DNA of 54,212 nt from Clostridia bacterium (GTDB taxonomy: Bacteria; Bacillota; Clostridia; Oscillospirales; CAG-272). Location: positions 1 to 54,212 of the forward strand of contig JAFVSI010000039.1 in NCBI GenBank assembly GCA_017503865.1, in the 5' to 3' direction. The notes below the pieces were generated by a model, which saw only the letters and a list, made by a program, of their open reading frames with translations, had not been told where the DNA came from and made no database searches. Within the stretch, counting starts at the first letter, position 1; every line of letters starts with the position of its first letter. This document shows, piece after piece, positions 10,515-54,212 of the stretch. Made by a program: the position numbers and the translations under genes.

Positions 10515-10515
10515 T

Positions 10516-11616: not shown

Positions 11617-11628
11617 GGGGGAAACATT

Positions 11629-11886: not shown

Positions 11887-11894
11887 AACAACAT

Positions 11895-11927: not shown

Positions 11928-11959
11928 TTTTCTAAAATTACATCTTGGGGGAATGACCT

Positions 11960-12352: not shown

Positions 12353-12453
12353 CGCAAGCGGAGAGTGGGAATTTCTTTTGCGTGTGCCTTTTTCTTTGTT
12401 GGGTAGAGTATTTGGGCGTTAAAAAAAGAAAGTGGCTTGTAGGCAAAATTTAA

Positions 12454-12487
12454 GGGTATGAAGCTAATGCTCCATACCCCATTTTTT
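12454..12487 (+). terminator. Terminator between endolysin and integration module
   Basis: GGGTATG (12454-12460) pairs with CATACCC (12473-12479), extended by AGC/GCT inside, and is followed by a T-rich run. It overlaps the stop of the convergent small gene and probably ends the late rightward transcript. A weaker hairpin (ACGCAA/TTGCGT, 12352-12383) precedes it. Confidence 0.7.
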
Positions 12488-12650
12488 ATTGCTCTTTGAT
12501 TTCGTCAAGAAGCTCGCTGATAGTATACGCCTTTAACAGTGTAGCGTGGGCTTGTGCCATATCCTTTTTATCCTTTGCGGCATCGTGAAGCTCAATGGCT
12601 TCGTTCAGCTCTGCTTCAAGATAGGCTATGATTTGCTCGGCTGTTTTCAT
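12486..12650 (-). CDS. 54-residue acidic helical protein beside attP
   Basis: Leftward ORF starting MKTAEQIIAYLEAELNEA and ending ISELLDEIKEQ, with a good ribosome site (GGGTGAG, about six bases before the ATG). It looks wholly alpha-helical and acidic, with no Cys and no membrane segment. It lies downstream of the integrase on the same strand, across the proposed attP, so in a prophage it would sit at the opposite end from the integrase. Small genes next to serine integrases can encode recombination directionality factors, but nothing in this sequence proves that here. It could also be an unrelated moron gene. Confidence 0.7.
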   Translation of the reverse strand: MKTAEQIIAYLEAELNEAIELHDAAKDKKDMAQAHATLLKAYTISELLDEIKEQ

Positions 12651-12671
12651 AGTTTCTCACCCTTTCAAATT

Positions 12672-12719
12672 ATTGTACTTTTATCACTTCACCGAACGGA
12701 GCATATACAAAAGTACAAT
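12672..12719. other. attP: Probable attP for the serine integrase
   Basis: A 48-base imperfect inverted repeat. The outer arms ATTGTACTTTT and AAAAGTACAAT match perfectly over 11 bases, and the centre is CCG-AA-CGG with the non-palindromic dinucleotide AA at 12695-12696. Length, imperfect symmetry, central dinucleotide and position (eight bases beyond the integrase stop) all fit a large-serine-integrase phage attachment site. An operator for the neighbouring small gene is the alternative. The site is intact, as expected for a non-integrated molecule. Confidence 0.65.
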
Positions 12720-12726
12720 GTTTTAG

Positions 12727-14148: not shown

Positions 14149-14211
14149 TTACATCACTCCTTTTTGTATATTCTTTGGTGCGGTGAATTGTTTTCAGCAT
14201 CACCCCCTTAA

Positions 14212-36917: not shown

Positions 36918-36953
36918 CAGTAAATAGTAAGACAAGAAAGAAGGTGCAAAACT

Positions 36954-37517
36954 ATGACCTTACTTGAATTTAAAAAGACAGTATTAGGGCTTATAGAGGA
37001 ATTAAACCCTAACAGCGAGCTTTTGACAGACGATCCCGACATAGCAGCGAAGATAAATTCCGTCATCAATCTTGTAATGTTTGAGATGGCGAGAATGAAG
37101 AAGATACCTAAGTATGTTGAGCTTGAGGTAACGAAGGGCGACTTGATTACATTTGAAGCCATTGAAAAGGAATGTGGCTACGAGGTATATCAGGTCGGCA
37201 CGATAGGGGGAGTGGCATACTCCCCCAAAGCTGACGGAACAGTATTCAAGGTTTTGGAGAGTGGTACGGCAGAGATAAACTGCTACGTATTCCCCGAACA
37301 AATAACGGAAAAGACCAAAGACAAAGCCTACGAGTTTGAATTGACTCCCGATGTGCTTGGGGTAATGGTATATGGTGTTGCGGGAGATTTGCTCAAGAGT
37401 GATGTTTCCGCAGAATACGGGCGAGTATATTCAGAGAGATACGAGTCAAAGAAGCAGATGCTTGACCCCCGCTATCAGATGACTACGGTCTATATTGAAG
37501 GGGGCATTGATATATGA
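36954..37517 (+). CDS. Head-tail adaptor, P22 gp4-like
   Basis: 187 residues, ATG behind GAAAGAAGGTGC. MTLLEFKKTVLGLIEELNPN, DIAAKINSVINLVMFEMARM and a C-terminal helical part (VAGDLLKSDVSAEYGRVYSE, RYESKKQMLDPR) match the gp4/gp6-type adaptors that ring the portal. A GGGGGAGT/ACTCCCCC hairpin lies in its coding sequence (37206-37226). The stop overlaps the gp10-like gene (ATGA). Confidence 0.8.
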   Translation: MTLLEFKKTVLGLIEELNPNSELLTDDPDIAAKINSVINLVMFEMARMKKIPKYVELEVTKGDLITFEAIEKECGYEVYQVGTIGGVAYSPKADGTVFKVLESGTAEINCYVFPEQITEKTKDKAYEFELTPDVLGVMVYGVAGDLLKSDVSAEYGRVYSERYESKKQMLDPRYQMTTVYIEGGIDI

Positions 37518-39193
37518 GTGCAACAACGGGAAGCCTTGTATCAAGAATGTACGGTGCTTTTCGTGGCGTTGACTTTCGGGGCGAAGAGATAAACCTATCA
37601 AGAAGCCCCGACAGTAAAAACGTTTGGAAAGACTACAAAGAGACAGACAGCATAAGGACAAGACCTGACCTTGAATTGAAGACTACCTTTAACACACCTG
37701 TATATGGTGTGTTTTTTTATAAGGATTTTCAGCTTGTGCATAGCGGAACGAAGCTCTACAAGGTAGTAAACGGAGCTAAAACAGAGCTTTATTCAGGCTT
37801 AAAGGCAGCACTCAGCGACAGCTTTATCTATGAGAATGTATGGTACTTCAAAGACGGACAGCATTATTTGCAGTATGACGGCACAACGATAAAAGAGGTA
37901 GAGGGCTATGTTCCCACTACCACAATTGCGAGAAAGCCAAGCGGTGGCGGTACTGTCTACGAAGATGTCAATATGCTCACGGGAAGAAGAAAAAACGCCT
38001 TTCTTGCTGACGGAGAGAGTAAGGTATTTGTCCTTGATGCTATGGAAATTGATAGCGACTACAAGCCTATTGTAAAGGTCAACGATGCCGTTGTAACAAA
38101 CTACACCGTTGACTATAAGGCGGGAAAAATAACATTTACAACGGCTCCTACCGTTCCCAAGACGGACGGACAGGATAACGTAACGGTAGAGTTTAGGAAG
38201 ACAAACGAGAAGCAGCGTAACAGCATTTTAAATTGTACTCTGCTTCAGGTGTTCGATAACAGAGTATTCGTAAGCGGAAATGATGAACAGCCTAATGTCG
38301 TATGGCATTGTAGCTTGAATGACCCTACCTATTTCAGCGATTTAGACTACTACCAAGAGGGACTTGACTCTGCAAAGGTAAAAGGTCTTGTAGCGGGAAA
38401 TAACGTGCTGTGGGTGTTCCGTGAGCCGTCTCAGGCTAATACAACGGTGTTCTATCATACACCTACTGTTGATAGTGAATACGGCAAAATCTATCCTTCT
38501 CAGCACTCAAGTATAACTACGGGCTGTGTCGCTAAAGCAATAAACTTTAACGATGACATTATCTTCTTTAGTGAGCGAGGAATGGAAGGTATAAGCGGTG
38601 ACGTAACTACCGAACAGGCTATTGCTCATAGAAGCTCTCTTGTGGACCGAAAAATGATAGCCGAGAAAGATTACAAGAATATGATCCTTGAAGAGTGGGA
38701 AGGTTATCTTCTCGTCTTTATTGGAAACAAGGTATATCTTGCTGACTCAAGAACGGCTTTCACGAACGAAAATCACATAGAGTACGAGTGGTTTTATTGG
38801 GAGCTTGACAAGAGGGTAACGTGTGCGAGAGTGTACGGCGGTGTGCTTTATATAGGCACAGAGGACGGCATATACACACTTACAAACAACACAAGCAACG
38901 TAGAGAGCTATTGGGTAACACCAAAGGATAAATTTAACGCTCCGCAGAAGCAGAAAACTACCAATAAACGAGGTTGTGTAGTAGAAGCAACGGGCGATAT
39001 TTCCGTATATGCAAAAATCGAGGACACAGATTTTGAGCTTATAGGAACATATGAAAAAGTCACGGACTATTTTGCTTGCAGAATAAAGCGTAAGAAGTGG
39101 AAAGATATACAACTTAAATTCCACTCAAAGACGAGATTTAGCCTTGAGACAGCTACGTTAGAGTGCTTTATCGGTGGATATATCAAGAGATAG
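37514..39193 (+). CDS. Head closure / DNA stabilisation protein, P22 gp10-like
   Basis: 559 residues. A beta-propeller-like protein: GVDFRGEEINLSRSPDSKNV starts the core, then repeated YxxGTKLYKV, KDGQHYLQYDGTTIKEVEGY, DNRVFVSGNDEQPNVVWHCS and FFSERGMEGISGDVTTEQAI blades. P22 gp10 and relatives close the portal channel after packaging and hold the needle or tail. A perfect terminator-like hairpin is embedded at 37691-37718. Length is normal. Confidence 0.8.
   Translation: MSATTGSLVSRMYGAFRGVDFRGEEINLSRSPDSKNVWKDYKETDSIRTRPDLELKTTFNTPVYGVFFYKDFQLVHSGTKLYKVVNGAKTELYSGLKAALSDSFIYENVWYFKDGQHYLQYDGTTIKEVEGYVPTTTIARKPSGGGTVYEDVNMLTGRRKNAFLADGESKVFVLDAMEIDSDYKPIVKVNDAVVTNYTVDYKAGKITFTTAPTVPKTDGQDNVTVEFRKTNEKQRNSILNCTLLQVFDNRVFVSGNDEQPNVVWHCSLNDPTYFSDLDYYQEGLDSAKVKGLVAGNNVLWVFREPSQANTTVFYHTPTVDSEYGKIYPSQHSSITTGCVAKAINFNDDIIFFSERGMEGISGDVTTEQAIAHRSSLVDRKMIAEKDYKNMILEEWEGYLLVFIGNKVYLADSRTAFTNENHIEYEWFYWELDKRVTCARVYGGVLYIGTEDGIYTLTNNTSNVESYWVTPKDKFNAPQKQKTTNKRGCVVEATGDISVYAKIEDTDFELIGTYEKVTDYFACRIKRKKWKDIQLKFHSKTRFSLETATLECFIGGYIKR
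37691..37718 (+). terminator. Intragenic terminator-like hairpin in the gp10-like gene
   Basis: AACACACC (37691-37698), seven-base loop, GGTGTGTT (37706-37713), then five more T. A perfect eight-base stem and T run inside codons for NTPVYGVFF near residue 60. Confidence 0.58.
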
Positions 39194-39204
39194 GGGGGAT
39201 ATAG

Positions 39205-40299
39205 ATGGGTACAACACCTAATTACGATGTCAATTACGATGACAAACGCTTCACTCAGGTAAATACAGAGAAAGAAGCGGCATTGACAGATGTAGAAAAA
39301 ACATACGGCGGTATGATAGACAAATCCGATGATTTTTATGACAAGCAGATACAAGCCGCAAAGGACTACGAGAAAAGACAGACCGAGATACAAAATCAGC
39401 AGACCGATTTTGCAATTCAGAAGATAGAACAGCAGAAAGACCAAGCCAAGAAGGACTACACCAAAGAGCAGTCAGGAGCTTATGTAGATTGGCAGAAGCA
39501 GAGCAATCAGTACGGAGCAAACGCCGAGCAGATAGCGGCTCAAGGAATGACTCATACGGGATATAGCGAAAGCTCCCAAGTTAGTATGTATAACACATAC
39601 CAAAACCGCATAACAACGGCGAGAGAGTCTTTTAACCTTGCAATCTTGAATTACAACAATGCTATTAAAGATGCTCGTCTTCAAAATAGTGCGGCTCTTG
39701 CGGAGATAGCGTATCAGTCATTACAGAAACAGCTTGAATTGTCTTTGGCGGGCTTTCAGTATAAAAATTCGCTTGTCACAGAATTGGCGAAAACGAAGCG
39801 AGAAATTGACAACGAGTACAATGACCGTTATCAAGATGTTCTCAAGCAGATCAATACAGAAAATGCACTTGCCGAGGAAGTTAGACAGTATAACGCTACT
39901 CTTGCGGAAAATCAGAGACAGTTTAATGCAAACAAAGCTTTGCAACAGGCTCAGCTCGATTTGCAAAAGGAACAATTTGCTTGGCAGAAAGCTCAAGCGG
40001 CAAATAGTGCAAAGGTATCAAGCGGCAAATCCTCTTCGGGTGGCTCGTCAGGTGGCAGTAAAAAGCCATCGGTCAAAAGCGGTAGCAAGCAAGTAAAACC
40101 GCAAGCAAAAATTACAAACGGTAACAAAGGCTCGAATGTAAGTGCTTCCGACTATATAAACAAGTTGATATCTTCGGGTGCTAACAAGGACAGGGTAGCT
40201 AATGAAATTAGCCTTGCACTTCGAGAAGGGGCAATCACCGAGAAAGAAGCAACACAGCTTCGAAACGAGTTTACGCCAAGAGGAATCCAATGGATTTAA
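39205..40299 (+). CDS. Coiled-coil internal virion / ejection protein
   Basis: 364 residues, ATG behind AGGGGGGATATAG. Residues about 15-270 are an unbroken charged helix/coiled coil (KEAALTDVEKTYGGMIDKSD, QQTDFAIQKIEQQKDQAKKD, EIDNEYNDRYQDVLKQINTE); a Gly/Ser/Lys linker (about 275-300) leads to a small C-terminal helix pair (DYINKLISSGANKDRVANEI). It directly precedes the giant gene, 15 bases away. Together they look like the ejection proteins that P22-like phages send into the host with the DNA. Its 3' end is where the duplicated segment begins. Confidence 0.78.
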   Translation: MGTTPNYDVNYDDKRFTQVNTEKEAALTDVEKTYGGMIDKSDDFYDKQIQAAKDYEKRQTEIQNQQTDFAIQKIEQQKDQAKKDYTKEQSGAYVDWQKQSNQYGANAEQIAAQGMTHTGYSESSQVSMYNTYQNRITTARESFNLAILNYNNAIKDARLQNSAALAEIAYQSLQKQLELSLAGFQYKNSLVTELAKTKREIDNEYNDRYQDVLKQINTENALAEEVRQYNATLAENQRQFNANKALQQAQLDLQKEQFAWQKAQAANSAKVSSGKSSSGGSSGGSKKPSVKSGSKQVKPQAKITNGNKGSNVSASDYINKLISSGANKDRVANEISLALREGAITEKEATQLRNEFTPRGIQWI

Positions 40300-40314
40300 A
40301 AAGGGGGGATAGCT

Positions 40315-43300
40315 TTGTCTAATTATTGGAAAAAGAAATTAGAAGAACTAACTGAGGAAGAAAAGAACAAAACCTTAAAAACTTCTCAAGAATCAAGCAC
40401 CCCCTCTAATTATTGGCAGCAAAAACTTGACGAGCTTGAAGAGTCAGAAAGAAAAAAGAATACCACAACAACGGCAAAGGACGATGACATAGCTCCCGTA
40501 ACAATTACCGAAGAAGACCGTAATAGGCTTAAATCATTGAAAGGCTTTGACGAAGAAGAAGATGACGAACGCACTTGGTTTCAAAAAGGTGCTTTTGAGG
40601 ACGGTTATCAGTTTGGAGACGTATTAAGGTCTATCTCTGCTTCTTCGGAAGATTTGGCTAACAACGTTATGGCGGGAATACTCGGTATCGGGGAAAAGGT
40701 TGTAGATGCGGGTGCTTATGTTGTCGGTGCTACGGGTAAACTCTTTGGAGCTGATGAATTTGCCGAGAAAACAAAGGACTTTATAGCAAAGGACTTGTAT
40801 GACGAAAAAGAGCTTGCCAAAAAGCTCGATTTAGTAGGAAATCCCATTTACGCATTGACAACGAAAAAGATACTCGGTATAGACGAAGATAAAGACTCGG
40901 TTTTTGGTGATAAAACCGACTCGGTAGCACAATCGGGCGGTCAGTTGATAACACAAATAGGCTTACAAGCCGTTGGTGTTCCTTGGTTTGTTACATCAGG
41001 TGTAACGAGTTTCGGTAGCGAGGTTGAGGGTGCTTTCAATGAGGGTGCAACCTACGGCGAAGCGGGTTTGAGTGGTGCTATAACGGCGGGTGCTGAAATA
41101 CTGACAGAAAAATTATCAGGCGGTATCAAATTTGGCAATATGGGTACGCTTGACGATGGACTCACAAAAGCTCTCGCAAGGGGCATTTCTAACAAATTCG
41201 TGCGTTCGGCTGCAAAGCTCGGTATGGACGTTGTGGGCGAGGGTGCTGAGGAATGGCTTTCTGAGGACATTGGCAGATTTGGTCAATGGCTTACATATCA
41301 GGACGATAAGACACTTACTGAAATGCTTTGGTCAGAAGAAGCTATGGAAGCGAAGATTGAAGCGTTTATAGGCGGTGGTATGCTTGGTGGCGTTGGTAGT
41401 GTTACTCAAGGCATACAAGCCAAAGCAAAGGGCGTAGATGCTACATCAGGCTTAACGGCAAACGAAGAAGCAGTATTCAAAAAGATATTTGAAGATCGTG
41501 TAGCGGAAGCCGAAAAGAACGGCGAAAAGCTGACTCTTGGAGAAAAGACAAAGCTCCATAACGAAATCCTTGAGCAGATGGAAAAAGGCTATATCTCTAC
41601 TGACACCATTGAGGAAGTGCTTGGCGGTGAAACCTATAAAAACTACAAGGACACGGTAGATAGCGAGGAAGCCATACTCAAGGAATTTGAGGAATTAGGC
41701 AATAAGCAAAATCCTACTCTTGCGGAGCAGACGAGATACGTTGAATTAAAGGCGAAGGTAGAGGAAATCAAGAACAGCACACAGCGTAAGGACCTTAAAA
41801 CTAAATTGAGCGAGGAAGTTTTCTCTCTCGCTAAAGATAGTAAACTCGCAGAAAGCTACTACGAGGGTGCAAGACGAGGACAGGCTTTTGAAGCTGATTT
41901 GTCGCAGTACGATGACACACAGAAAGCTACAATACAGAGTGCTATTGATAGCGGAATACTGAATAACTCACGGAAAACACACGAGTTTGTTGATTTTGTA
42001 GCCAAAATATCAGCAGACAAGGGTGTTTCTTTTAATTTTGCCGATAATGAGAAAATCGCAAATACAAGTTTTGCGGTAGAGGGTGCTATCGTCAACGGCT
42101 ACAAGGTTACAAACGAGGACGGAAGCATAGGTATAACGGTAAATATCGAGTCACCTAAATATCTTAATTCCGTTGTCGGTCACGAAGTTACGCACGTCCT
42201 TGAGGGTACGGAGCTTTACGGAGAATTGCAAAAGACTCTGTTTGAATATGCAAAGTCCAAAGGCGAGTACGACAGCAGAAGGGCAGCCCTCGGCGAACTG
42301 TATGCTGAGAAAGATATTGATACAGAGCTTACGGCAGATTTGGTCGGCGACTACCTCTTTACCGACAGCGACTTTATCAACAATCTATCCACAAAAAACA
42401 GGAACGTATTTCAGAAGATATATGACGAGATCAAGTACCTTTGCAAAGTCGCAACGGCGGGAAGCAAAGAAGCGAGAGAGCTTGAGAAGGTCAAAAAGGC
42501 TTTTGAGAAGGCGTATAAAGAGAGTGGCAAGGCGAGTGCTAAAACAGAGTATTCTCTTACTCCCGTAGAAGCCGTGCAGCCGAAGTCTAACAAGTGGAAC
42601 AGAACACTCACAACGGAAGAAGCAAAAGCGAGATTTCCGAAGTTATGGGACGTTACCGCAGACGAGAGCGAAGCGAGAAACCCGACACAGATTTCAAGTA
42701 CAGTAAATTCGTACAGGAAAGTCTATAACTTCCTTCAGAACGAGGGATTTGACGGAACAATACTTGATGCTTCAAGTGGTCTTGGCTACGGCACAAAGGC
42801 GGGAATAGAGGAATACGGCTTTGATGTTGAGGATATAGAGCCTTACCCCGATAAGAGCTACAATCCGAAATACAAAGATTATTCCGCTTTGGATAAGAAA
42901 TACGATGTTGTTATCAGTAACGCCGTGCTGAATGTTCTTCCTCAGGACCAGAGAGATGCACTTGTAGTGAAAATGGGCGAAATGCTCAACGATGGCGGTA
43001 GAATTTTTATCAATGTACGTGGTAAAGATGTAGACACGTTGGCAAGCAATAGCAACAATACAAATATCTCTCCTATGGAGTGGTTTGTTGATAGCACAGG
43101 AAGTTATCAGAAGGGCTTTACAAAGCCTGAGCTTGTTGCCTATTTGCAAGATGCTCTTGGAGAGGGCTTTACAGTTAAGCCTACAAATATGTTTGGTGCT
43201 GTTTCCGCTATTGTCACGAAAGATAGCGGAGTAAAATATTCTCTTTCCGACAGTAACGGTAAGAAGTTGACGAAAGAGCAAGGAGAGTATTTCAAGGACA

Positions 43301-46300
43301 GTAAGGTACGTGACGAGAACGGCAATCTCAAGGTTATGTATCACGGCTCACAAGATGCGGGATTTCATATATTCGACTCTTCTATGTCCGATGACGATAC
43401 GAGCTTCTTCTTTGTTGACAGAAACGATGTAGCGGCAACGTATAGCGGAACAAGCGAAACCTACGCCGCACCGACTTTCCACACGGCAGAGGATTTTAAC
43501 AAATTTTTTGCCGAAAACGGAATGAACGAGTACAGCGTTAAGGAAGAAATGCACGGAGAGTATAAGTGGTTTGTCCTGTATGAAAACGGTAGCGAGATCG
43601 CTTCAAGCGAAACCGCAAAAATGCTCTATGATGAATTTCGTGATTGGACGGGTCTTGGAGAAGGCGAAGCTAATTACAAGGTGTATCTCAACCTTACAAA
43701 TCCTCTTGTGGTAGATGCAGAGGGGCGTAATTGGAATAGAATTTCGGGTGAATTTTCTCAAGAGGTTTACGATAGATACCAAACCTTGACGGCAGAAGAA
43801 AAAACAGCATTGACTCAGCTTGCCGCTTGGGAAGATGCAAGTATATTCCGTGATGAAATAGAAACGGCAGTAGAAAGCGTAGAGCGAGGGGCAAATTATG
43901 TAGATGATTACATAAGAAACCTTGCAAGTGCGGCGAACAAATTAGGCGATGCAGATATGTACCGCCTTTTTGATATTGCTACTGATAACTTTTCCGAAGA
44001 GTCCTTGCGTGAGAACGCTGTTAAGTATCTCAAGACGAGAGACTTTGCACAGAGGGCAAAAGAACAGGGCTATGACGGTGTTATATTCAAAAACATCGTT
44101 GACAATGGCGGTTTTGCTGACGGAACAGAGGGAGCTTCTACTGTTGCTATTGCCTTTGAGTCTAATCAGATAAAGTCCGTTGCAAACGAAAAGCCTACGG
44201 GTGATGCTGATATACGTTATTCACTCTCCGAGGATAATGACTCTTATTCACGTATTTACGATATGCAAGTTGAAGTCAACAATCTCCGAAAATCCATTAG
44301 TGAGTTTGAAGCGAGCGATGATTTTAAGTCGCATATGAGCGAATTAAGCGAAGCGATAAGCAACAACGATATTGATAATGGAATTAAAGCGTATAAAGAA
44401 TGGAGAGAGAAATCAGGCTACGATGCACTTATAAACAAAAGAGACTCGTTACAAGCCGAGCTTGACAAACTCCGAAAAGAATATGACGATAACTTAACCA
44501 ATCGAGAGCTTGAAAAAGAACAAGCCGCTATTGCTAAATCGGGCTTGAGTGAAGCAGATTATTTCCGTAAACAAGCAGTAAAAGAATTTGGCTATACGCC
44601 ATATTTCTACGATGCGGGATATATTACACCGAACGGAAAAATGCTTAACTTTAGCGGCGAAAAAGGCTACCATTACGGCGGCAGAGGTCAAGATCATAGA
44701 GCTATCGGAGTTATCTACGCTGATACCAACGGAAGCGATGCTCTAAATCGTTTTGTTAAAGACGGCAATATTCGTATAATGGCAGAGTCGCCCGGCATTG
44801 ATATATCTTCTGTTGCAGAGCCGACAAAAGAACAGTACGCAACAATAAGAAAATTTATCAATGAGTATTCCGATAAAGGATTTTTCAACGTTGACCTTAC
44901 CGATGAAAACGGAAGAGTAATAGGCACTTTACAATATGAAAATCGCATAAATTCTACACGAATTATTAACGATATAAAGCACTATTACGAAACGGGAGAA
45001 ATACGGGAACAGTCTAATGTTGATAGATTTCGTTATTCTTTGAGCTTGGATAGCGAGGGCAGAGAGTTAAGCCAAGCGGTCAAAAATCGCTTTGGCAATT
45101 CAAAGGTGGTCGATGAAAACGGGAGCCTTAAAGTCGTTTATCACGGCACGGCAACGGGAGAGTTTACGGTCTTTGACAAATCAAAAGGTAGTGTAGAGGG
45201 TGACTTCGGAAGCGGCTTTTACTTCACCGACAACGAAGCTGATGTGTCCGAGCATTACGAGGGCGGCGGTCCCGACTTTGAAAATAAGGTAGCAAGACGA
45301 GCTGAACAGATTGAAATGGACGAAGAAATTGACTATGACGAAGCCGAGCAAAGGGCAAGAGAGGAACTTTACAAGGGCGGTCATAAGTTTGAAGTCTATC
45401 TCAATATCGAAAATCCCGCAGTTGTCGGAGAAACAATGCTATTTGATAGTGAGTCCTATTATGAGCAATACAACAGAGACGATTATGATAGTGATGAAGA
45501 CTACGAGGGCGATGTAGAACAGCTCCTTATAGACGATGTTGACAATATCCTTTGGGAAATAGACAACAAATTAGATGTTTACAGTACAGAGGGTATTGCA
45601 AACGTTTTGTACGAAGCCTTTTATAATGGCGGTATTGGCATAGAAGAACTCAAGAAGCAAATTAACGATCTCTACCTTGAGAATAACAACGGCGAGCTTG
45701 TGGGAAACGAGGTCACAAGGCAGATTATTGAGAGCTTAGGCTATGACGGCATTATTGACCCTACCGTATCGGGCAAGTGGAATATGGAAATGGAAGAAGG
45801 TACGACACATTATATTGTGTTCAAGCCTAATCAGATAAAAGCTGTCACCAATCAAAACCCGACAGATAATCCTGACATTAACCTTTCTCTCTCCAAAGAT
45901 GGCGAAACACCCAAGAGATACGGCAATTATGCAGTATCAGGTAAAGACATAGCTCTTGAGAAAGCACCCGTGCAAGAGGATATTGCTCCCGTAGAAGAAG
46001 TCGCTCCTGTTGGCGAAAATGTTGCTGAAAAGCCACAGCCCAATTTGCCGATAGACTATACTGACTATTCTCCCGTAGTGGACGAAAAGGCAGAGCTTGA
46101 AGCAGAGATTGAACGTATAGGGGCTGAAATGGAAGCTCTAAAAAACGAATTAGACAAATTAGCAGTCCAAGCCAATCAGCAAACTGTCACGTGGGACGAG
46201 TTTAATGCCAAAGTTGATGAAATTGGTCCGAGATGGGACGAGCTAAATAAACAGCGTGACAGTCTGATAGACGAGGTAATCGAGTTTGAAAAAGCTGAAG

Positions 46301-49300
46301 CCGCTTTGCAGAGGGAGAGGACAGACAGCCTTACCTATGCAGAAGCACCGCCTGAAATGGAAGCTCCGTACTATGCACAGAGGGAAGCTGTTACGCTTGA
46401 TAACAATGCTTTGACGGAGATAACAAAAGAAGTCGCCGATATTCTCTATCTTGATGCAGAAGAGAGTCAAGAAATGGCAGAGACTATACAGAGGTTTGCA
46501 CAAAACGAAAACCTAACTGAAAGCGAACTGTTTGAGGAAATCAAAAATAATTTCCTATACCACGAGGAAATAGACAATTCTGACGAAAAAGACTTGTTGT
46601 CGAGAGCAAAGAAATTTATGAAAGGAACAAAGCTCTATGTTCCCCCGCATCTAAAAGGCGACTTTAACGGAAGAAGAAGAGACGGCTATAATGCTTTTCG
46701 TCGAGAACATTTTGGGCATTTCCATCTCACGACAAACGAAGCGAGCAACGCTATGGGAGTTGACCAATTCTACGGTGACCTCAATGAGATGTTCCCTATG
46801 TTTTTCCCTGATGATGCTATAAACCCCGCAGACCAATTAAAAATAATGGGCGATGTTGCGAATATGGTTATAGAGCCTGAATACCGTTCAGGTCCATATA
46901 ACGATGAAACAATACAAGAGGTTTGCGACACAATCAGCAACGGTTTAGCACGTTATTCGGAAGGTGAACGACAGAGATATTCCGAAGAAGCGAGAAAGAG
47001 CTTCTATGAACAGGCAGACGATTACGCTCCCGTTGCGGAAGATACAGCACCCGTTGTAGAAAATGTGGCTACTCCTGATGCTGCTCCTGACAAGACATAC
47101 GAAGCTATCAGACCGAAAAAGAGCAAAGAGCCTAAAATGATAAGAGTCAAACCTGACAGCGAAACAAAAGAAAAGCTACAAAGCCTTTACAATAACGGCA
47201 AGAACGGCAATAACGGCTCTAAACCCACCGCAGAAAAGGTAGCACAGATTTATGACAATGAGCCTGATGCTCCGAAGGAAAAAGGTAGCGGTTGGTCTTG
47301 GTTTATGAGAAATTTTGTTGACAAGCATCACATATTTGAAAAGTTGGCTCTCAAGACAAAAAATCGTGAGCTTATGGCAAAAGCAGATCAGATGCACAGA
47401 GCCGAGTCAAGTGCACAATGGCTGATAGGTCACGGTAAGGGTAAAGTAAAAGCCTTGAACGATATTCGCAAAGAAGTAGAAAGCTCAGGACTTACAAAGC
47501 AATTCTACGAGTATATGTATCACGCTCTCAACGTTGACAGAATGACTTTGGAAGAACGCTACGAGGGAGCGAAAAACAAGGCGGTATATGGCGACTCTGT
47601 TACGGCAGATATATCAAGAAGAACCGTTGCAAAACTTGAAGCGAAATATCCTCAATTCAAGAAGTGGGCGAAGAGTGTGTACGACTATAACACACTTCTC
47701 CGCAACGAGCTTGTTAAAAACGGCGTTATCTCGCAAGAAACGGCTGACTTGTGGGCTGAAATGTACCCGCATTATGTTCCTATTCGCAGAGTGGGCGATA
47801 GTGGTATCAATATCAACGTTCCGCTTGATACAGGAAGAACGGGCATAAATGCCCCCGTCAAGAGAGCAACGGGCGGTAATAGTGATATTCTTCCTCTGTT
47901 TGACACAATGGCTATGAGGACAGAGCAGACCTTCAAGGCTGTTGCTAAAAATCGTTTTGGCGTGGAGCTGAAAAACACTCTCGGTACAACAATAGACAAG
48001 CAGAGTGCAGACCTTGACGAAGTAATTGAGGGCATAGAAAAGCACGAAGAATTACTCAAGAAGGGCGAGAACGGTCAAAATCCCACGTTCACAGTATTTG
48101 AGAACGGAGAGAAAGTAACCTTTGAGATTTCCGAGGATATGTACGAAGCTCTGAAACCCGCTGAGGGAATAGTCACAAAGAACAGCAAGACTCTTAACAA
48201 GCTCAATAATTTCCGCAGAGGGCTTATTACAGAGTACAATCCCGTGTTTATGGCGACAAATGCCGTGAAAGATGCTCAGGATATTCTTATAAACTCTCAA
48301 CACGCCGCAAAAACCTATATGTCTATTCCTAAAGCAATTAAGGAATTAGCGACAAAAGGCAAGTGGTACACCGAATATATGGAAAACGGTGGAGAGCAAA
48401 ACACTTACTTTGACGGACAGAAAAACACTTTCACAAAAGAAGATACGGGCTTTAAAAAGCTGATTGGTATGCCTTTGAGAGCTATAAAAGCCGCTAATAA
48501 CTTTGTTGAACGTGCACCGAGACTCGCTGAATATATAGCAAGCCGTGAGTCAGGGGCGAGTGTTGATGTCGCTATGCTCGATGCGGCGAGAGTAACAACA
48601 AACTTTGCAGCGGGCGGTGATGTTACAAAGTGGGCTAACCGAAACGGAGCAACGTTCCTGAACGCTTCCGTACAAGGTGCGGCACAGCAAGTACGTAATA
48701 TCCGTGAAGCAAAGGCAAACGGGCTTAAAGGTTGGGTACAGCTTGCGACAAAGGCGGCGATTGCGGGAATACCCGCTATGATATTGAACGGACTTCTTTG
48801 GGACGATGACGAGGAATACGAAGAACTCTCCGACTATGTAAAGGATAACTATTACATTGTCGCAAAGTACGGTGACGGTCAATTTGTAAGAATACCTAAA
48901 GGTAGAGCCGTAGCGGTTATTCAAGATGCTTTTGAGCAGATGGGAAATGCTATAACGGGAAATGACGAGGTTGACCTTGCAAACTTCTGTGAGCTTGTTA
49001 TTTCAAACCTTGCACCCAACAATCCGTTAGACAACAATATCATTTCTCCGCTAATTCAAGCAGCGGGTAATAAAACTTGGTACGGCGAGGACCTTGTACC
49101 TTCAAGATTACAAGACCTTCCCGCAAGTGAGCAGTTTGACGAGAGTACGGACTCAATCAGTAAGTGGCTTGGCGAAACATTTAATATCAGCCCTATCAAG
49201 CTGAATTATCTTTTAGATCAATACAGCGGCGGCGTGGGTGATGTATTCTTGCCTATGCTGACTCCCGAAGCGGAGAGTGGCGATAATTCGCTTGTTGGAA

Positions 49301-50127
49301 ACCTTGTCGCTCCGTTCAAGGATAAATTCACTACCGACAGCGTAATGAATAATCAGAATGTCGCAGACTTCTACGATACAAAGGATAAGCTGACAGTCAA
49401 TGCAAAGGCAAGCACAGCAACGGACGAAGATGTACTTATGAGTAAGTATATCAATTCCGTAAGCTCCGAGCTTGGCGAGTTGTACGGCTTGAAGCGAGAG
49501 GTACAAAACAGCGACCTTCCCGATGATAGAAAGTACGAGAAGGTACGTGATATTCAGGACGAAATCAACGCTCTTGCGAGAGAAAGCCTTAGCACCTATG
49601 AAAATGTCTATATTGACGGCGACTATGCCGAGATTGGCGACAGACAGTACCGTTTGAACGATGAAGGCGAGTGGACGAAAATCAGCGACAAGCAGTACGA
49701 AAAACAGGAAGATGTAACAGACGAGCTTGGTATAAGTGCTTCTGACTATTGGAGCAACAAGAGCGAGTATGACTTTGCATACCAAAATCCCGAAAAGTAT
49801 GCTGTTGCAAAGTCCGTTGGCGGTTACGACTTCTATAAATCGTATATGAGCGACTTGTATGATATTAAAGCAGACAAGGACAAAAGCGGAAAATCTATCA
49901 GAGGAAGCCGTAAAGAAAAAGTCGCTGAGTATGTCAATAGCCTTGATATAGACTACGGTGAGAGATTGATACTCTTCAAGGGCGAATACAAGGCAGACGA
50001 TACCTACAATATGGAGATTATAGACTATCTGAATAACAGAGAGGATATATCCTATGACGAAATGGTATCTATCTTGAAAGAGTTAGGCTTTGAGGTTGAC
50101 TCTGAGGGTAATATCACTTGGGACTAA
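40315..50127 (+). CDS. Giant polyvalent virion protein (second reading of 258-10070)
   Basis: Same 3270-residue protein as at 258-10070, TTG start, preceded by the intact coiled-coil gene. HEVTH is encoded near 42181, the methyltransferase motif I near 42766, the two ART-like YHG motifs near 43339 and 45139, and NPVFMATN near 48238. Treat it as one gene in the 40,057-bp genome unless the duplication is proved real. Confidence 0.85.
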   Translation: MSNYWKKKLEELTEEEKNKTLKTSQESSTPSNYWQQKLDELEESERKKNTTTTAKDDDIAPVTITEEDRNRLKSLKGFDEEEDDERTWFQKGAFEDGYQFGDVLRSISASSEDLANNVMAGILGIGEKVVDAGAYVVGATGKLFGADEFAEKTKDFIAKDLYDEKELAKKLDLVGNPIYALTTKKILGIDEDKDSVFGDKTDSVAQSGGQLITQIGLQAVGVPWFVTSGVTSFGSEVEGAFNEGATYGEAGLSGAITAGAEILTEKLSGGIKFGNMGTLDDGLTKALARGISNKFVRSAAKLGMDVVGEGAEEWLSEDIGRFGQWLTYQDDKTLTEMLWSEEAMEAKIEAFIGGGMLGGVGSVTQGIQAKAKGVDATSGLTANEEAVFKKIFEDRVAEAEKNGEKLTLGEKTKLHNEILEQMEKGYISTDTIEEVLGGETYKNYKDTVDSEEAILKEFEELGNKQNPTLAEQTRYVELKAKVEEIKNSTQRKDLKTKLSEEVFSLAKDSKLAESYYEGARRGQAFEADLSQYDDTQKATIQSAIDSGILNNSRKTHEFVDFVAKISADKGVSFNFADNEKIANTSFAVEGAIVNGYKVTNEDGSIGITVNIESPKYLNSVVGHEVTHVLEGTELYGELQKTLFEYAKSKGEYDSRRAALGELYAEKDIDTELTADLVGDYLFTDSDFINNLSTKNRNVFQKIYDEIKYLCKVATAGSKEARELEKVKKAFEKAYKESGKASAKTEYSLTPVEAVQPKSNKWNRTLTTEEAKARFPKLWDVTADESEARNPTQISSTVNSYRKVYNFLQNEGFDGTILDASSGLGYGTKAGIEEYGFDVEDIEPYPDKSYNPKYKDYSALDKKYDVVISNAVLNVLPQDQRDALVVKMGEMLNDGGRIFINVRGKDVDTLASNSNNTNISPMEWFVDSTGSYQKGFTKPELVAYLQDALGEGFTVKPTNMFGAVSAIVTKDSGVKYSLSDSNGKKLTKEQGEYFKDSKVRDENGNLKVMYHGSQDAGFHIFDSSMSDDDTSFFFVDRNDVAATYSGTSETYAAPTFHTAEDFNKFFAENGMNEYSVKEEMHGEYKWFVLYENGSEIASSETAKMLYDEFRDWTGLGEGEANYKVYLNLTNPLVVDAEGRNWNRISGEFSQEVYDRYQTLTAEEKTALTQLAAWEDASIFRDEIETAVESVERGANYVDDYIRNLASAANKLGDADMYRLFDIATDNFSEESLRENAVKYLKTRDFAQRAKEQGYDGVIFKNIVDNGGFADGTEGASTVAIAFESNQIKSVANEKPTGDADIRYSLSEDNDSYSRIYDMQVEVNNLRKSISEFEASDDFKSHMSELSEAISNNDIDNGIKAYKEWREKSGYDALINKRDSLQAELDKLRKEYDDNLTNRELEKEQAAIAKSGLSEADYFRKQAVKEFGYTPYFYDAGYITPNGKMLNFSGEKGYHYGGRGQDHRAIGVIYADTNGSDALNRFVKDGNIRIMAESPGIDISSVAEPTKEQYATIRKFINEYSDKGFFNVDLTDENGRVIGTLQYENRINSTRIINDIKHYYETGEIREQSNVDRFRYSLSLDSEGRELSQAVKNRFGNSKVVDENGSLKVVYHGTATGEFTVFDKSKGSVEGDFGSGFYFTDNEADVSEHYEGGGPDFENKVARRAEQIEMDEEIDYDEAEQRAREELYKGGHKFEVYLNIENPAVVGETMLFDSESYYEQYNRDDYDSDEDYEGDVEQLLIDDVDNILWEIDNKLDVYSTEGIANVLYEAFYNGGIGIEELKKQINDLYLENNNGELVGNEVTRQIIESLGYDGIIDPTVSGKWNMEMEEGTTHYIVFKPNQIKAVTNQNPTDNPDINLSLSKDGETPKRYGNYAVSGKDIALEKAPVQEDIAPVEEVAPVGENVAEKPQPNLPIDYTDYSPVVDEKAELEAEIERIGAEMEALKNELDKLAVQANQQTVTWDEFNAKVDEIGPRWDELNKQRDSLIDEVIEFEKAEAALQRERTDSLTYAEAPPEMEAPYYAQREAVTLDNNALTEITKEVADILYLDAEESQEMAETIQRFAQNENLTESELFEEIKNNFLYHEEIDNSDEKDLLSRAKKFMKGTKLYVPPHLKGDFNGRRRDGYNAFRREHFGHFHLTTNEASNAMGVDQFYGDLNEMFPMFFPDDAINPADQLKIMGDVANMVIEPEYRSGPYNDETIQEVCDTISNGLARYSEGERQRYSEEARKSFYEQADDYAPVAEDTAPVVENVATPDAAPDKTYEAIRPKKSKEPKMIRVKPDSETKEKLQSLYNNGKNGNNGSKPTAEKVAQIYDNEPDAPKEKGSGWSWFMRNFVDKHHIFEKLALKTKNRELMAKADQMHRAESSAQWLIGHGKGKVKALNDIRKEVESSGLTKQFYEYMYHALNVDRMTLEERYEGAKNKAVYGDSVTADISRRTVAKLEAKYPQFKKWAKSVYDYNTLLRNELVKNGVISQETADLWAEMYPHYVPIRRVGDSGININVPLDTGRTGINAPVKRATGGNSDILPLFDTMAMRTEQTFKAVAKNRFGVELKNTLGTTIDKQSADLDEVIEGIEKHEELLKKGENGQNPTFTVFENGEKVTFEISEDMYEALKPAEGIVTKNSKTLNKLNNFRRGLITEYNPVFMATNAVKDAQDILINSQHAAKTYMSIPKAIKELATKGKWYTEYMENGGEQNTYFDGQKNTFTKEDTGFKKLIGMPLRAIKAANNFVERAPRLAEYIASRESGASVDVAMLDAARVTTNFAAGGDVTKWANRNGATFLNASVQGAAQQVRNIREAKANGLKGWVQLATKAAIAGIPAMILNGLLWDDDEEYEELSDYVKDNYYIVAKYGDGQFVRIPKGRAVAVIQDAFEQMGNAITGNDEVDLANFCELVISNLAPNNPLDNNIISPLIQAAGNKTWYGEDLVPSRLQDLPASEQFDESTDSISKWLGETFNISPIKLNYLLDQYSGGVGDVFLPMLTPEAESGDNSLVGNLVAPFKDKFTTDSVMNNQNVADFYDTKDKLTVNAKASTATDEDVLMSKYINSVSSELGELYGLKREVQNSDLPDDRKYEKVRDIQDEINALARESLSTYENVYIDGDYAEIGDRQYRLNDEGEWTKISDKQYEKQEDVTDELGISASDYWSNKSEYDFAYQNPEKYAVAKSVGGYDFYKSYMSDLYDIKADKDKSGKSIRGSRKEKVAEYVNSLDIDYGERLILFKGEYKADDTYNMEIIDYLNNREDISYDEMVSILKELGFEVDSEGNITWD

Positions 50128-50137
50128 CGCACAAAAA

Positions 50138-50164
50138 AGGGGGCTATTTTATAGCTCCCTTTTC
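50138..50164 (+). terminator. Terminator after the giant gene (second reading)
   Basis: Same ten-base stem with TTT loop and T run as at 10081-10107. Confidence 0.75.
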
Positions 50165-50184
50165 TATTGAGGGAGAGAGCAAAT

Positions 50185-50571
50185 ATGAGTAAGAAACAAG
50201 ACAGACCGTATGTACGAAAAGCCTCTGAGCTTGAGCAAAAATACAATTTTAGCGGTAACTTTGGCGAAATAAAAAAGCTCATAGCAACAGCACAAAGAGC
50301 CGCCGCCGATGCTTTATCCGCAGTTGCGGGTGTAGATGCCAAGCTCGAAGAAATATCAGAATTGGCAAGCAAGCTCAATGTCCTTGAAGCACAGAGTACA
50401 TATACGGCTATGATGACAGACACACTTTTGAAAGGGCAAGGAATGAAAGAGAAAATAGCAAGTTGGTACAAAGAGTCGTTGTGGACGGCTGAAATGGTAG
50501 ATGCAGCGGTAACGAAGGGCATTATTACCGAAGCGGAAGCAACCGAAATAAAAGGACAGGCGGTGACGTGA
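50185..50571 (+). CDS. XkdX-like motif protein (second reading)
   Basis: Same 128-residue protein as 10128-10514, with the same ATG chosen after GGGAGAG. Confidence 0.7.
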   Translation: MSKKQDRPYVRKASELEQKYNFSGNFGEIKKLIATAQRAAADALSAVAGVDAKLEEISELASKLNVLEAQSTYTAMMTDTLLKGQGMKEKIASWYKESLWTAEMVDAAVTKGIITEAEATEIKGQAVT

Positions 50572-50572
50572 T

Positions 50573-50854
50573 ATGAACTTAACCGTTATTTCTACGCTGA
50601 TTGTTGAAATCGGCGTTCTTTTGGGTGTGATTATTCCCGTTATAGTTTTTATCCTAAAGCTGATAAACGGTATGAAATGTCAGTTAAGGAGCGAAATGTT
50701 GCGGACGTATTATCACAACAAAGAATCAAAGAAAATTCGTCAGTATGAGTATGAGAATTTTATATATCTCTACGAGTCATACAAGGCGTTAAAAGGCAAT
50801 TCCTTCATAGACAAAATCTATAAGGAAGTGCAAACGTGGGAAATACTCACTTGA
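50573..50854 (+). CDS. Holin-like small membrane protein (second reading)
   Basis: Same 93-residue one-helix protein as 10516-10797. Confidence 0.65.
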   Translation: MNLTVISTLIVEIGVLLGVIIPVIVFILKLINGMKCQLRSEMLRTYYHNKESKKIRQYEYENFIYLYESYKALKGNSFIDKIYKEVQTWEILT

Positions 50855-50869
50855 GAGGGGGGAGATCAG

Positions 50870-51673
50870 ATGCTTAACAATGATGTCGTAAAATCTCAAT
50901 ATGACGTGAGAGATTACAGTATATCCGCAGAGTCGGACTTTCCCGAAGCCTTTTGTGTAGATGTCAAAGTACCCGTAAAAAATCAAGGCTATCAAGGTAC
51001 TTGTGTAGCTCACGCTCTTTCTTCCGTGATTGAGTATCACTATAAGAGACAGCACAACACCTACGAGAAATTCAGTACAGAGTTTATATACGGCTATCGC
51101 CCCGAAGGTTATTACGTGGGAAGCGGTATGCGTATTCGTGATGCTCTAAAGACTATTCAGCAGTACGGAGATGTCTTTGTTAGCGATTGTCACGGCAACA
51201 ATGACTGTGAAAAGGCTATGCAAAATGTATCTGCAAACCTTGATACTTTGAAAGAGCTTGCCTATCCGCATAGGATAAGTGCATATTTCAAAATCAATAG
51301 TGCAGACGAGCTTAAAACCGCCCTGATGAAGCACGGCGTAGTCGTTGTCTCTATGAATACCTATAAGGGCAGTAAGTTAGTTGATGATGTCTATACTTAC
51401 GACTCTACCGCAGAACACGGAAGACATTGTGTATTCATATACGGGTGGAATGAGAAAGGTTGGCTCGTTCAAAACTCTTGGGGCATACTCTACGGCGGTG
51501 ACGGTAGATTTATAATTCCCTTTGATTACAAATTCAATGAGATGTGGGGAATTGTAGATAACATTACCGAAGGAGAGCTTAACAAGCCCAAGAGAAATAG
51601 CTTCTTGGATATTATCTATTCCGTTTGGAATATGATTGTCAATCTATATTACTATTTCACTAACAAATCATAA
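50870..51673 (+). CDS. Papain-like cysteine protease (second reading)
   Basis: Same 267-residue protein as 10813-11616, with C45, H186 and N202 intact. Confidence 0.85.
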   Translation: MLNNDVVKSQYDVRDYSISAESDFPEAFCVDVKVPVKNQGYQGTCVAHALSSVIEYHYKRQHNTYEKFSTEFIYGYRPEGYYVGSGMRIRDALKTIQQYGDVFVSDCHGNNDCEKAMQNVSANLDTLKELAYPHRISAYFKINSADELKTALMKHGVVVVSMNTYKGSKLVDDVYTYDSTAEHGRHCVFIYGWNEKGWLVQNSWGILYGGDGRFIIPFDYKFNEMWGIVDNITEGELNKPKRNSFLDIIYSVWNMIVNLYYYFTNKS

Positions 51674-51685
51674 GGGGGAAACATT

Positions 51686-51943
51686 ATGAAAATCAATTGG
51701 CTCGTAAGAATTAAAAACAAAAACTTTTGGCTTGCTATCATTCCCGCTTTGCTTCTGCTTATTCAGGTAGTGGCGGCGGTGTTTGGTATTCAGCTTGACC
51801 TCGGTGACATCGGAAACAAATTGCTTGCCGTTGTCAATGCGGTGTTTGGTGTGCTTGCCATTATCGGCGTAGTAAACGACCCGACCACGAAAGGAATTGC
51901 GGACAGCGACCAAGCTATGACCTATGACAAACCGAAAGAATAA
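51686..51943 (+). CDS. phi-LC3 family holin (second reading)
   Basis: Same 85-residue protein as 11629-11886. Confidence 0.93.
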   Translation: MKINWLVRIKNKNFWLAIIPALLLLIQVVAAVFGIQLDLGDIGNKLLAVVNAVFGVLAIIGVVNDPTTKGIADSDQAMTYDKPKE

Positions 51944-51951
51944 AACAACAT

Positions 51952-51984
51952 AAAGGGAGTGATTTTTGTCACTCCCTTTTTTCT
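51952..51984 (+). terminator. Terminator after the holin (second reading)
   Basis: Same 11-base stem as 11895-11927. Confidence 0.85.
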
Positions 51985-52016
51985 TTTTCTAAAATTACAT
52001 CTTGGGGGAATGACCT

Positions 52017-52409
52017 ATGACAATTAAAGCGTATTCTAAAAAGAAAGACGGAAATAAAAAACTATCTACCAATTTTAGAGTAAAAGAGTTTGCTTGCACA
52101 GACGGAAGCGACCCTATTTTCATTGACTCTGATTTAGTAAATGTTTTGCAGAAGATTAGATCGCATTTCGGAAAGTCCGTGACTATCACTTCCGCATATA
52201 GAACGCCAAGCAAAAATAAAGCTGTCGGCGGTCAAACGTATTCGCAACATCTTTACGGCAGAGCAGCAGATATTAAGGTAAAGGGAGTAACGCCGAAAAA
52301 GGTAGCGGCTTATGCGGAAACTTTACTCAAGAATAAGGGCGGTATCGGAACGTATAATACCTTCACTCATATTGATATTCGCACTACAAAATCTCGGTGG
52401 AAGGGCTAA
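52017..52409 (+). CDS. M15 endolysin (second reading)
   Basis: Same 130-residue protein as 11960-12352. Confidence 0.9.
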   Translation: MTIKAYSKKKDGNKKLSTNFRVKEFACTDGSDPIFIDSDLVNVLQKIRSHFGKSVTITSAYRTPSKNKAVGGQTYSQHLYGRAADIKVKGVTPKKVAAYAETLLKNKGGIGTYNTFTHIDIRTTKSRWKG

Positions 52410-52510
52410 CGCAAGCGGAGAGTGGGAATTTCTTTTGCGTGTGCCTTTTTCTTTGTTGGGTAGAGTATTTGGGCGTTAAAAAAAGAAAGTGGCTTGTAGG
52501 CAAAATTTAA

Positions 52511-52544
52511 GGGTATGAAGCTAATGCTCCATACCCCATTTTTT
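52511..52544 (+). terminator. Terminator after the endolysin (second reading)
   Basis: Same GGGTATG/CATACCC hairpin as 12454-12487. Confidence 0.7.
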
Positions 52545-52707
52545 ATTGCTCTTTGATTTCGTCAAGAAGCTCGCTGATAGTATACGCCTTTAACAGTGTA
52601 GCGTGGGCTTGTGCCATATCCTTTTTATCCTTTGCGGCATCGTGAAGCTCAATGGCTTCGTTCAGCTCTGCTTCAAGATAGGCTATGATTTGCTCGGCTG
52701 TTTTCAT
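52543..52707 (-). CDS. 54-residue helical protein beside attP (second reading)
   Basis: Same leftward small gene as 12486-12650. Confidence 0.7.
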   Translation of the reverse strand: MKTAEQIIAYLEAELNEAIELHDAAKDKKDMAQAHATLLKAYTISELLDEIKEQ

Positions 52708-52728
52708 AGTTTCTCACCCTTTCAAATT

Positions 52729-52776
52729 ATTGTACTTTTATCACTTCACCGAACGGAGCATATACAAAAGTACAAT
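52729..52776. other. attP: Probable attP (second reading)
   Basis: Same 48-base inverted repeat with central AA as 12672-12719. Confidence 0.65.
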
Positions 52777-52783
52777 GTTTTAG

Positions 52784-54205: not shown

Positions 54206-54212
54206 TTACATC

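What the first reader, a model, noticed from the sequence alone, without database searches (positions are those of the whole stretch)
40315..50127. 3270-residue polyvalent protein combining a zincin, a methyltransferase-like and two ADP-ribosyltransferase-like domains
One gene, a quarter of the genome, sits right after a coiled-coil virion protein and carries HEVTH plus a downstream Glu, a SAM-methyltransferase-like fold, two YHG[ST]-type ART-like domains, coiled-coil spacers and an LPD38-like C-terminal part. Known for polyvalent proteins: several effectors are fused so that they are packaged and delivered together. Inferred here: this is the ejection protein of a podovirus and a multi-target early takeover weapon. 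The exact domain set and order, including the unnamed module at residues 1410-1570, seem worth describing.
Basis: partly seen in the sequence, partly recalled or inferred. Interest (0 to 1): 0.88.

Follow-up and report, generated by a model that had tools for sequence, protein, structure and literature searches.

The report
Self-cutting phage effector polyprotein (proposed)
A gut-type bacterial phage spends a quarter of its genome on one giant protein that probably enters the host with the phage DNA and carries several exchangeable enzymes, and a short repeated sequence at the seams between them may be where the protein cuts itself apart.

Summary
The 3270-aa ORF is real: a polyvalent protein of the kind described by Iyer et al. 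2017, in a circular 40,057-bp temperate phage genome. Two ART-PolyVal domains (H-Y-D residues kept), an HExxH...E zincin motif, a divergent SAM-methyltransferase-like family, an unnamed module shared with other large phage proteins, and LPD38 are present. Folds were not predicted (tool off). The more interesting result is the family's anatomy. Relatives share an N-terminal part ending in the zincin and a C-terminal tail; the middle is an exchangeable cassette. A short island, typically [VT][KQR][YFH]S[LI][STN], follows the zincin ([YFH]S[LIVF] in 32 of 40 anchored relatives, aromatic-x-aliphatic in 39 of 40; shuffles average 1.2 of 40 for the former) and precedes 24 BLAST-unrelated kinds of module. 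It recurs at other seams with varying codons. Iyer et al. predicted zincin processing; the passages I read name no site. I propose this island as the site. Cleavage is not shown. Against it: motif-bearing proteins without a recognised zincin exist, three HExxH-bearing proteins of other phages lack the motif, and outside this family ART tails often keep only its first half.

The parts
40315..50127 (+). polyvalent protein gene, 3270 aa (the same DNA is also at 258-10070 because the circular genome is wrapped)
40315..40485 (+). N-terminal charged tail with a duplicated short SNYW..KL motif (residues 1-57)
   Evidence: sequence; similar repeats in several relatives (by eye)
40486..40500 (+). first DIAPV motif (residues 58-62)
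40567..41574 (+). Gly/Ala-rich (24%) N-terminal chassis domain (residues 85-420)
41947..42549 (+). zincin-like domain (residues 545-745); HEVTH 623-627, Glu671
   Evidence: no relevant Pfam, NCBIfam or PDB sequence hit
42547..42561 (+). junction motif 1, EYSLT (residues 745-749), behind the zincin
42589..43236 (+). SAM-methyltransferase-like module (residues 759-974)
43234..43248 (+). junction motif 2, KYSLS (residues 974-978)
43246..44214 (+). ART-PolyVal domain 1 (residues 978-1300), H1010, Y1043, D1254
44215..44229 (+). junction motif 3, RYSLS (residues 1301-1305)
44500..45033 (+). unnamed module (residues 1396-1573), also in other large phage proteins
45031..45045 (+). junction motif 4, RYSLS (residues 1573-1577)
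45046..45900 (+). ART-PolyVal domain 2 (residues 1578-1862), H1610, Y1648, D1811
45880..45894 (+). junction motif 5, variant NLSLS (residues 1856-1860)
45979..46011 (+). DIAPV/EVAPV cluster (residues 1889-1899)
46072..47004 (+). helical, coil-like region (residues 1920-2230)
   Evidence: weak coil-type Pfam hits
47020..47055 (+). DYAPV/DTAPV cluster before the C-terminal chassis (residues 2236-2247)
47275..49704 (+). C-terminal chassis (residues 2321-3130), LPD38 at 2832-2986 (48808-49272)
49705..50124 (+). conserved C-terminal tail (residues 3131-3270), in 29 of 31 full-length relatives
39205..40299 (+). 364-aa coil-like neighbour, homologue in 61 of 76 relative loci
37514..39193 (+). 559-aa conserved virion-module neighbour, homologue in 63 of 76 relative loci

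Best explanation
It is an ejection-type virion protein turned into an effector carrier. The core (C-terminal chassis plus conserved tail, and a Gly/Ala-rich N-terminal part) enters the host with the phage DNA. Between the chassis halves lies an exchangeable cassette, here methyltransferase-like, ART, an unnamed module and a second ART. The zincin that closes the N-terminal chassis cuts the chain at a repeated junction site, [VT][KQR][YFH]-S-[LI]-[STN], in the linkers behind itself and between modules, and frees the effectors; the ARTs then ADP-ribosylate host targets. Step by step: polyvalent protein of a phage late module, shown; cassette exchange around a fixed chassis, shown by sequence; junction motif kept at the protein level, shown; packaged and ejected, about 0.8, inferred from relatives; cut at the motif by this zincin, about 0.4, inferred; effector activities, inferred from conserved residues.
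For: Fixed chassis and variable middle. Modules and chassis diverge discordantly: MT 80% vs chassis 51% with L060, ART2 76% vs 48% with L026, ART2 71% vs 51% with L017. [YFH]S[LIVF] within 30 aa of the zincin tail in 32 of 40 anchored non-redundant sequences (window included), shuffles mean 1.2, max 7 of 40; 6.3% of random windows in the same proteins; 24 single-linkage BLAST clusters downstream, 20 with the motif in a member. Aromatic-x-aliphatic in 39 of 40, spacer 10-22 aa. 124 instances of a wider pattern join 38 upstream to 37 downstream clusters. Codons vary: 48 [YF]SLS instances, 42 different 12-nt words. In 13 large proteins outside the family the core [RKQT][YF]S[LIVMF] lies 80-300 aa after HE[LIVMAF]xH in 8 of 14 cases (random mean 1.64, 0 of 5000 as high; wider pattern 8 of 14, mean 2.44, 0.0006). 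Zincin ligands conserved. Iyer et al. 2017 predicted release of domains by such zincins (PMC5512222, passages). An LPD38 polyvalent protein is in JC1 virions.
Against: No cleavage data, no fold. Six large proteins without a zincin by my pattern have a similar motif density (13 in 15,050 residues, shuffles 4.0; L092 7, L125 4; L092 is a fragment and has HExxH words my pattern excludes) to 47 with one (101 in 127,780, shuffles 33.8). BA3, Vibrio 1.205 and MetMV proteins have HExxH and no core motif; counting them, the 8 of 14 becomes 8 of 17. Outside the family 10 of 14 ART tails end in D[ILV][RN][YFH]S but only 4 of 14 have [YFH]S[LIVMF]. L004 lacks the motif after its zincin; 6 of 31 full-length relatives have no [YF]SL[STAKNG] at all. 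The zincin has no relevant Pfam, NCBIfam or PDB match. Per Iyer et al., N4 virion RNA polymerase is packaged unprocessed and ArdC and TraC1 are transferred full-length despite a zincin, so processing, if any, may come after delivery or not at all. Tyr codons at the motif are biased (TAT 27 of 31).
Confidence: 0.5

Rival explanations
1. The junction motif is an uncut linker or docking element, for example a short strand that binds a chaperone, the portal or the ejection channel so that the long chain can be threaded; the chain stays whole.
For: Motif in proteins without a recognised zincin (L125, L122); a second motif, DIAP, is also strongly repeated (100 core matches vs 8.0 in shuffles) with no known role; other zincin-bearing proteins are delivered uncut according to Iyer et al..
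Against: It stands directly behind the zincin in 39 of 40 anchored sequences as an isolated island of about six residues in otherwise unconserved sequence.
Confidence: 0.3
2. The motif is the edge of the neighbouring folded domains (a closing strand of the zincin, an opening strand of ART), so it marks domains, not junctions.
For: Very regular after ARTs in the family (8 of 9 tails), and Pfam's PBECR5 match begins within two residues of the motif in L020 and L121.
Against: Spacer before it varies from 10 to 22 aa; it joins 38 upstream to 37 downstream clusters.
Confidence: 0.12
3. The motif is a DNA-level recombination site that lets modules be swapped.
For: Cassettes are exchanged; Tyr codon bias (entropy lower than all but 0.1% of simulations).
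Against: 42 different 12-nt words in 48 instances; codon entropy at the Ser and Leu positions not significantly below background (7%, 28% and 6.7% of simulations as low).
Confidence: 0.04
4. The protein is processed by another protease of host or phage, for example the papain-like peptidase encoded in the lysis region, not by its own zincin.
For: PF00112 peptidase at 50870-51673 (scanned on the identical copy at 10813-11616); motif-bearing proteins without a recognised zincin exist.
Against: No tblastn homologue of the papain-like gene in any of 76 relative loci, many cut short. HExxH is in all 31 full-length relatives, partly because HE[IV]TH was a search pattern.
Confidence: 0.14

Closest known systems
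Polyvalent proteins (Iyer et al. 2017, PMC5512222; abstract, sections 9 and 29, and passages read)
   Same: Large phage late-module protein with unrelated domains (ART, zincin-type peptidase, methyltransferase, LPD38); predicted packaging, injection and release of domains by the zincin
   Different: No cleavage site or shared linker named in what I read (in the main text 'linker' and 'ysl' 0 hits, 'cleavage site' only in a reference title); their methylases are mostly NPP(Y/F) adenine methylases, this one is not
LPD38 polyvalent protein gp69 of Burkholderia phage JC1 (PMC9144972; passages and tables read)
   Same: LPD38 near the C terminus, 22.1% of the genome, end of the virion module, virion-associated by mass spectrometry
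   Different: Carries a lytic-transglycosylase-like domain, helicase-like and LPD3 regions; no ART listed in the table passage seen
Bacillus phage Palmer gp20 (AJK28087.1, Pagevirus)
   Same: Homologous C-terminal chassis, same place before antiholin/holin
   Different: 1678 aa, no HExxH, no core junction motif, no YHG (two wider-pattern matches inside it): reads as an ejection-type core without cargo
Phage N4 virion RNA polymerase (PMC12633501, two passages read; PMC5512222, passages)
   Same: Giant ejected protein with an HExxH domain and a large helical C-terminal part
   Different: Polymerase cargo; said to be packaged unprocessed

Membership tests
Polyvalent proteins | two or more domains of unrelated activity in one polypeptide | tested here: met
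   ART-PolyVal and LPD38 over Pfam cut-offs; MT-like and zincin by motif
Polyvalent proteins | encoded among phage late/virion genes | tested here: met
   terminase, portal and capsid genes upstream, lysis genes downstream
Polyvalent proteins | packaged in the virion and injected | not testable with these tools
   only inferred from JC1 gp69
ART-PolyVal / Tox-ART-HYD2 | Pfam PF18760 over its curated cut-off | tested here: met
   74.0 and 75.4 bits vs 31.2
ART-PolyVal / Tox-ART-HYD2 | active-site H, Y, D | tested here: met
   columns conserved in at least 14 of 15 ARTs, present in both window ARTs; assignment to strands 1, 2 and 5 is by motif, definition from PMC5512222 section 9
Zincin metallopeptidase | HExxH plus downstream Glu | tested here: met
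   H623, E624, H627, E671
Zincin metallopeptidase | match to a known family model or solved structure by sequence | tested here: not met
   no relevant Pfam hit at E up to 1, no NCBIfam hit at E up to 0.1, no PDB hit at E up to 1
Zincin metallopeptidase | zincin fold and peptidase activity | not testable with these tools
   structure prediction off
Class I SAM methyltransferase | SAM-binding motif I in a Rossmann-like domain | tested here: inconclusive
   motif-I-like block shared by the 4 aligned homologues; Pfam hits below cut-off
EcoKI/TaqI-like adenine methylase | NPP(Y/F) motif | tested here: not met
   absent from residues 759-974; definition
LPD38 | Pfam PF18857 over its cut-off | tested here: met
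   108.9 bits vs 27
Short-tailed phage (podovirus) | no tail tube or tape measure, short tail | tested here: inconclusive
   29 window proteins scanned against PHROGs; none has a tape-measure or tail-tube family as best hit, but weak tape-measure (E 0.0013, to the Gam-like ORF) and tail-sheath (E 4e-4, to 34911-35939) hits exist; morphology not observed
Self-processing viral polyprotein | embedded protease cuts defined sites between products | not testable with these tools
   candidate protease and candidate site found, cleavage not assayed

The most novel reading that the evidence does not exclude
Polyvalent proteins of this phage lineage in gut Clostridia are true self-processing polyproteins: [VT]-[KQR]-[YF]-S-[LI]-[STN] is the recognition site of the embedded zincin, shared by dozens of unrelated cargo modules like a standard connector, so that a module flanked by it can be carried and released. 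The DIAP[VI] repeats would be a second connector that sets the cassette off from the ejection core.
Probability: 0.35. Interest if true: 0.82.

Novelty: new variant of a known kind. Interest (0 to 1): 0.6.

Why it matters
Since 2017 polyvalent proteins have been thought to be cut apart by built-in zincins, but my searches found no paper that names where. A specific short candidate site makes that directly testable with peptides and proteomics, and would help to find module borders and new effector domains in otherwise opaque giant phage proteins.

Tried and rejected
Structure prediction for residues 545-1370 and 1290-1950 was prepared (alignments A6 and A4) but the tool was off, so no fold search was made. 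Alignments A2, A3 and A5 misplaced fragments; A6 misplaced its one MT homologue; none was used for a conclusion. The DNA-recombination reading of the motif was tested by codons and mostly rejected. The papain-like peptidase as processing enzyme: no homologue in any of 76 loci, many cut short. Sequence matches to solved structures were uninformative for MT, N chassis, module and ART2. The MT module alone found no relative in viral contigs, and in 295 genomes the window's own contig plus two marginal matches. The N chassis had no match in 50,697 phage records at E up to 0.01. Promoter-like sites in 36900-50700: 21 against 23.4 in shuffles; terminator-like 20 against 11.4. No Rfam family at gathering thresholds, no tRNA.

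Rows dropped: 71 ORFs with the N chassis became 55 after removing those sharing more than 80% of 8-mers with a kept one; with the window 56; 40 of these could be anchored at the zincin tail with at least 60 aa beyond, 16 could not. Pfam was run on 17 of the 31 full-length relatives. In the outside set of 25 ORFs, L102 (part of the protein in L112) and L126 (a chassis relative) were left out of the zincin test; 13 of the remaining 23 have an HE[LIVMAF]xH, 14 in all. The three phage proteins BA3, Vibrio 1.205 and MetMV were fetched later and are not in that 14. The statement that no cleavage site is in print rests on full-text searches in open-licence PubMed Central papers (none used the motif letters) and on passages, not the whole text, of Iyer et al.. 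Papers seen as passages only: PMC9144972, PMC11318856, PMC12633501, PMC9503650; others as listings.

Full report
What is there. The window is contig C89 of a 2.14-Mb, 90-contig genome whose name is not given. Its first 14,155 bases repeat the last 14,155 exactly, so it is a circular 40,057-bp phage genome read past its end. An integrase of the DNA-invertase type, Gam-like, Erf-like, SSB and DnaD-like genes lead to terminase, portal, capsid and tail-spike genes, then a 364-aa coil-like protein, the 3270-aa ORF at 40315-50127 and a lysis region. Of 29 window proteins scanned none has a tape measure or tail tube as its best PHROG, with weak secondary tape-measure and sheath hits; this fits a short-tailed phage but does not prove it.

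Domains. Pfam finds ART-PolyVal and LPD38 far above cut-offs. Both ARTs keep H, Y and D as expected from Iyer et al. 2017 (for the definition, for the residues). The zincin is seen by motif and conservation only: H623, E624, H627, Glu671, without Pfam, NCBIfam or PDB support. The methyltransferase-like module belongs to a phage family that also occurs as a separate gene (Microcystis phage MJing1) and inside another large protein (Rhodobacteraceae phage LS06); it lacks NPP(Y/F), the mark of the adenine methylases usual in polyvalent proteins. The module at 1396-1573 occurs in four viral contigs and in L125, in each case inside an ORF of more than 3100 residues.

Family anatomy. Searches with the N-terminal chassis gave relatives in viral contigs and in 15 MAG contigs, most of them Clostridia of herbivore guts and one named Bacilli: 71 ORFs, 55 non-redundant, 31 full-length over 1900 aa. 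The N-terminal chassis is shared by definition of the search; the last 140 residues are found in 29 of 31, the LPD38-bearing stretch in 12 of 31, and the middle differs. Modules travel apart from the chassis: identity to the window is 80% for MT but 51% for the chassis in L060, 76% against 48% for ART2 in L026. Pfam sees ART-PolyVal in 9, LPD38 in 9 and PBECR5 in 6 of the 17 full-length relatives scanned. So this is a carrier with interchangeable cargo.

The junction motif. A count of four-letter words in 31 relatives plus the window, which also picks up words conserved by plain homology, ranks DIAP first (66 distinct contexts, 0.7 expected, 26 of 32 proteins) and YSLS eighth (25, 1.3 expected, 17 of 32). 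Anchored at the last helix of the zincin, 32 of 40 sequences have [YFH]S[LIVF] within 30 residues (shuffles mean 1.2, maximum 7) and 39 of 40 have aromatic-x-aliphatic; only L004 has neither. The spacer before it is 10 to 22 residues. The preferred form is [VT][KQR]YS[LI][STN]; the aromatic, Ser and aliphatic positions were used to find the site, so their information content is inflated, but positions -2 and +3 were not used and still stand out (1.86 and 1.35 bits). What follows falls in 24 BLAST clusters. Across 124 instances of a wider pattern the zincin-tail cluster joins 17 downstream clusters and the ART-start cluster follows 17 upstream clusters; some of these wider matches lie inside domains and are chance, and single linkage can merge unrelated pieces. 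The unnamed module ends at the same motif or a variant in other phages (RFRYSY, HSRFSA, HASFSL, HSKYAI). Codons vary, 42 words in 48 instances, apart from a Tyr bias, so selection is mainly on the protein.

Outside the family. In 13 large proteins with other chassis the core motif follows HExxH within 80-300 residues in 8 of 14 cases (random mean 1.64); with three later-fetched phage proteins that have HExxH and no core motif (BA3, Vibrio 1.205, MetMV) it is 8 of 17. ART tails there end in D[ILV][RN][YFH]S in 10 of 14 but have the following aliphatic residue in only 4 of 14. Large proteins without a zincin by my pattern have as many motifs per residue as those with one (13 in 15,050 against 101 in 127,780), though 11 of the 13 come from L092, a fragment with HExxH words that the pattern excludes, and L125. 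The pairing of motif and zincin is therefore firm in this lineage and not universal.

Mechanism. Iyer et al. predicted that zincins release the domains of polyvalent proteins, citing the processing of P1 DdrB, but also note that N4 virion RNA polymerase is packaged unprocessed and that ArdC and TraC1 are transferred full-length (passages); processing might come after delivery. A conserved zincin, a conserved substrate-like island just behind it, and the same island between exchangeable enzymes are what such processing would need. Packaging and ejection are supported by JC1 gp69 in virions (PMC9144972, passages and tables) and by Palmer gp20, which has the C-terminal core without HExxH, YHG or core motif. 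DIAP-type repeats (100 core matches against 8.0 in shuffles) mark the N-terminal tail and the border between cassette and C-terminal core in many members; their role is unknown.

Novelty. The protein is a new member of the polyvalent class; the fixed chassis with an exchangeable cassette and a shared junction site is a new variant in my reading. That no cleavage site is in print rests on eight full-text searches of open-licence papers, none with the motif letters, and on passages of Iyer et al.; its supplements were not read.

Noticed in passing
1-14155 and 40058-54212: Identical stretches: the contig is a circular 40,057-bp genome wrapped past its end.
   Followed up: yes
40486-40500, 45979-46011, 47020-47055: DIAP[VI]-type repeats, strongly over-represented in this protein family; [DE]IAP is in no other open frame of at least 80 codons of this phage; role unknown.
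   Followed up: partly
50870-51673 (also 10813-11616): Papain-like cysteine peptidase gene (PF00112, E 2.9e-11) in the lysis region, upstream of an M15 endolysin; no homologue in any of 76 relative loci, many cut short.
   Followed up: partly
40315-40485: Short duplicated N-terminal motif (SNYW..KL here, SF..Y/F/W in several relatives) followed by DIAPV; possibly a docking signal.
   Followed up: no
49705-50124: C-terminal tail with a GSRKEKV..YVNSLD block, the most widely shared part of the C-terminal half (29 of 31 full-length relatives); candidate virion-docking signal.
   Followed up: partly
L121 residue about 1340, L020 residue about 1296: Pfam's PBECR5 match starts within two residues of the junction motif, so the curated model may include a shared linker.
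   Followed up: no
L091 4197-4736: A second, diverged copy of the unnamed module in the same large ORF; L092 has one too.
   Followed up: no
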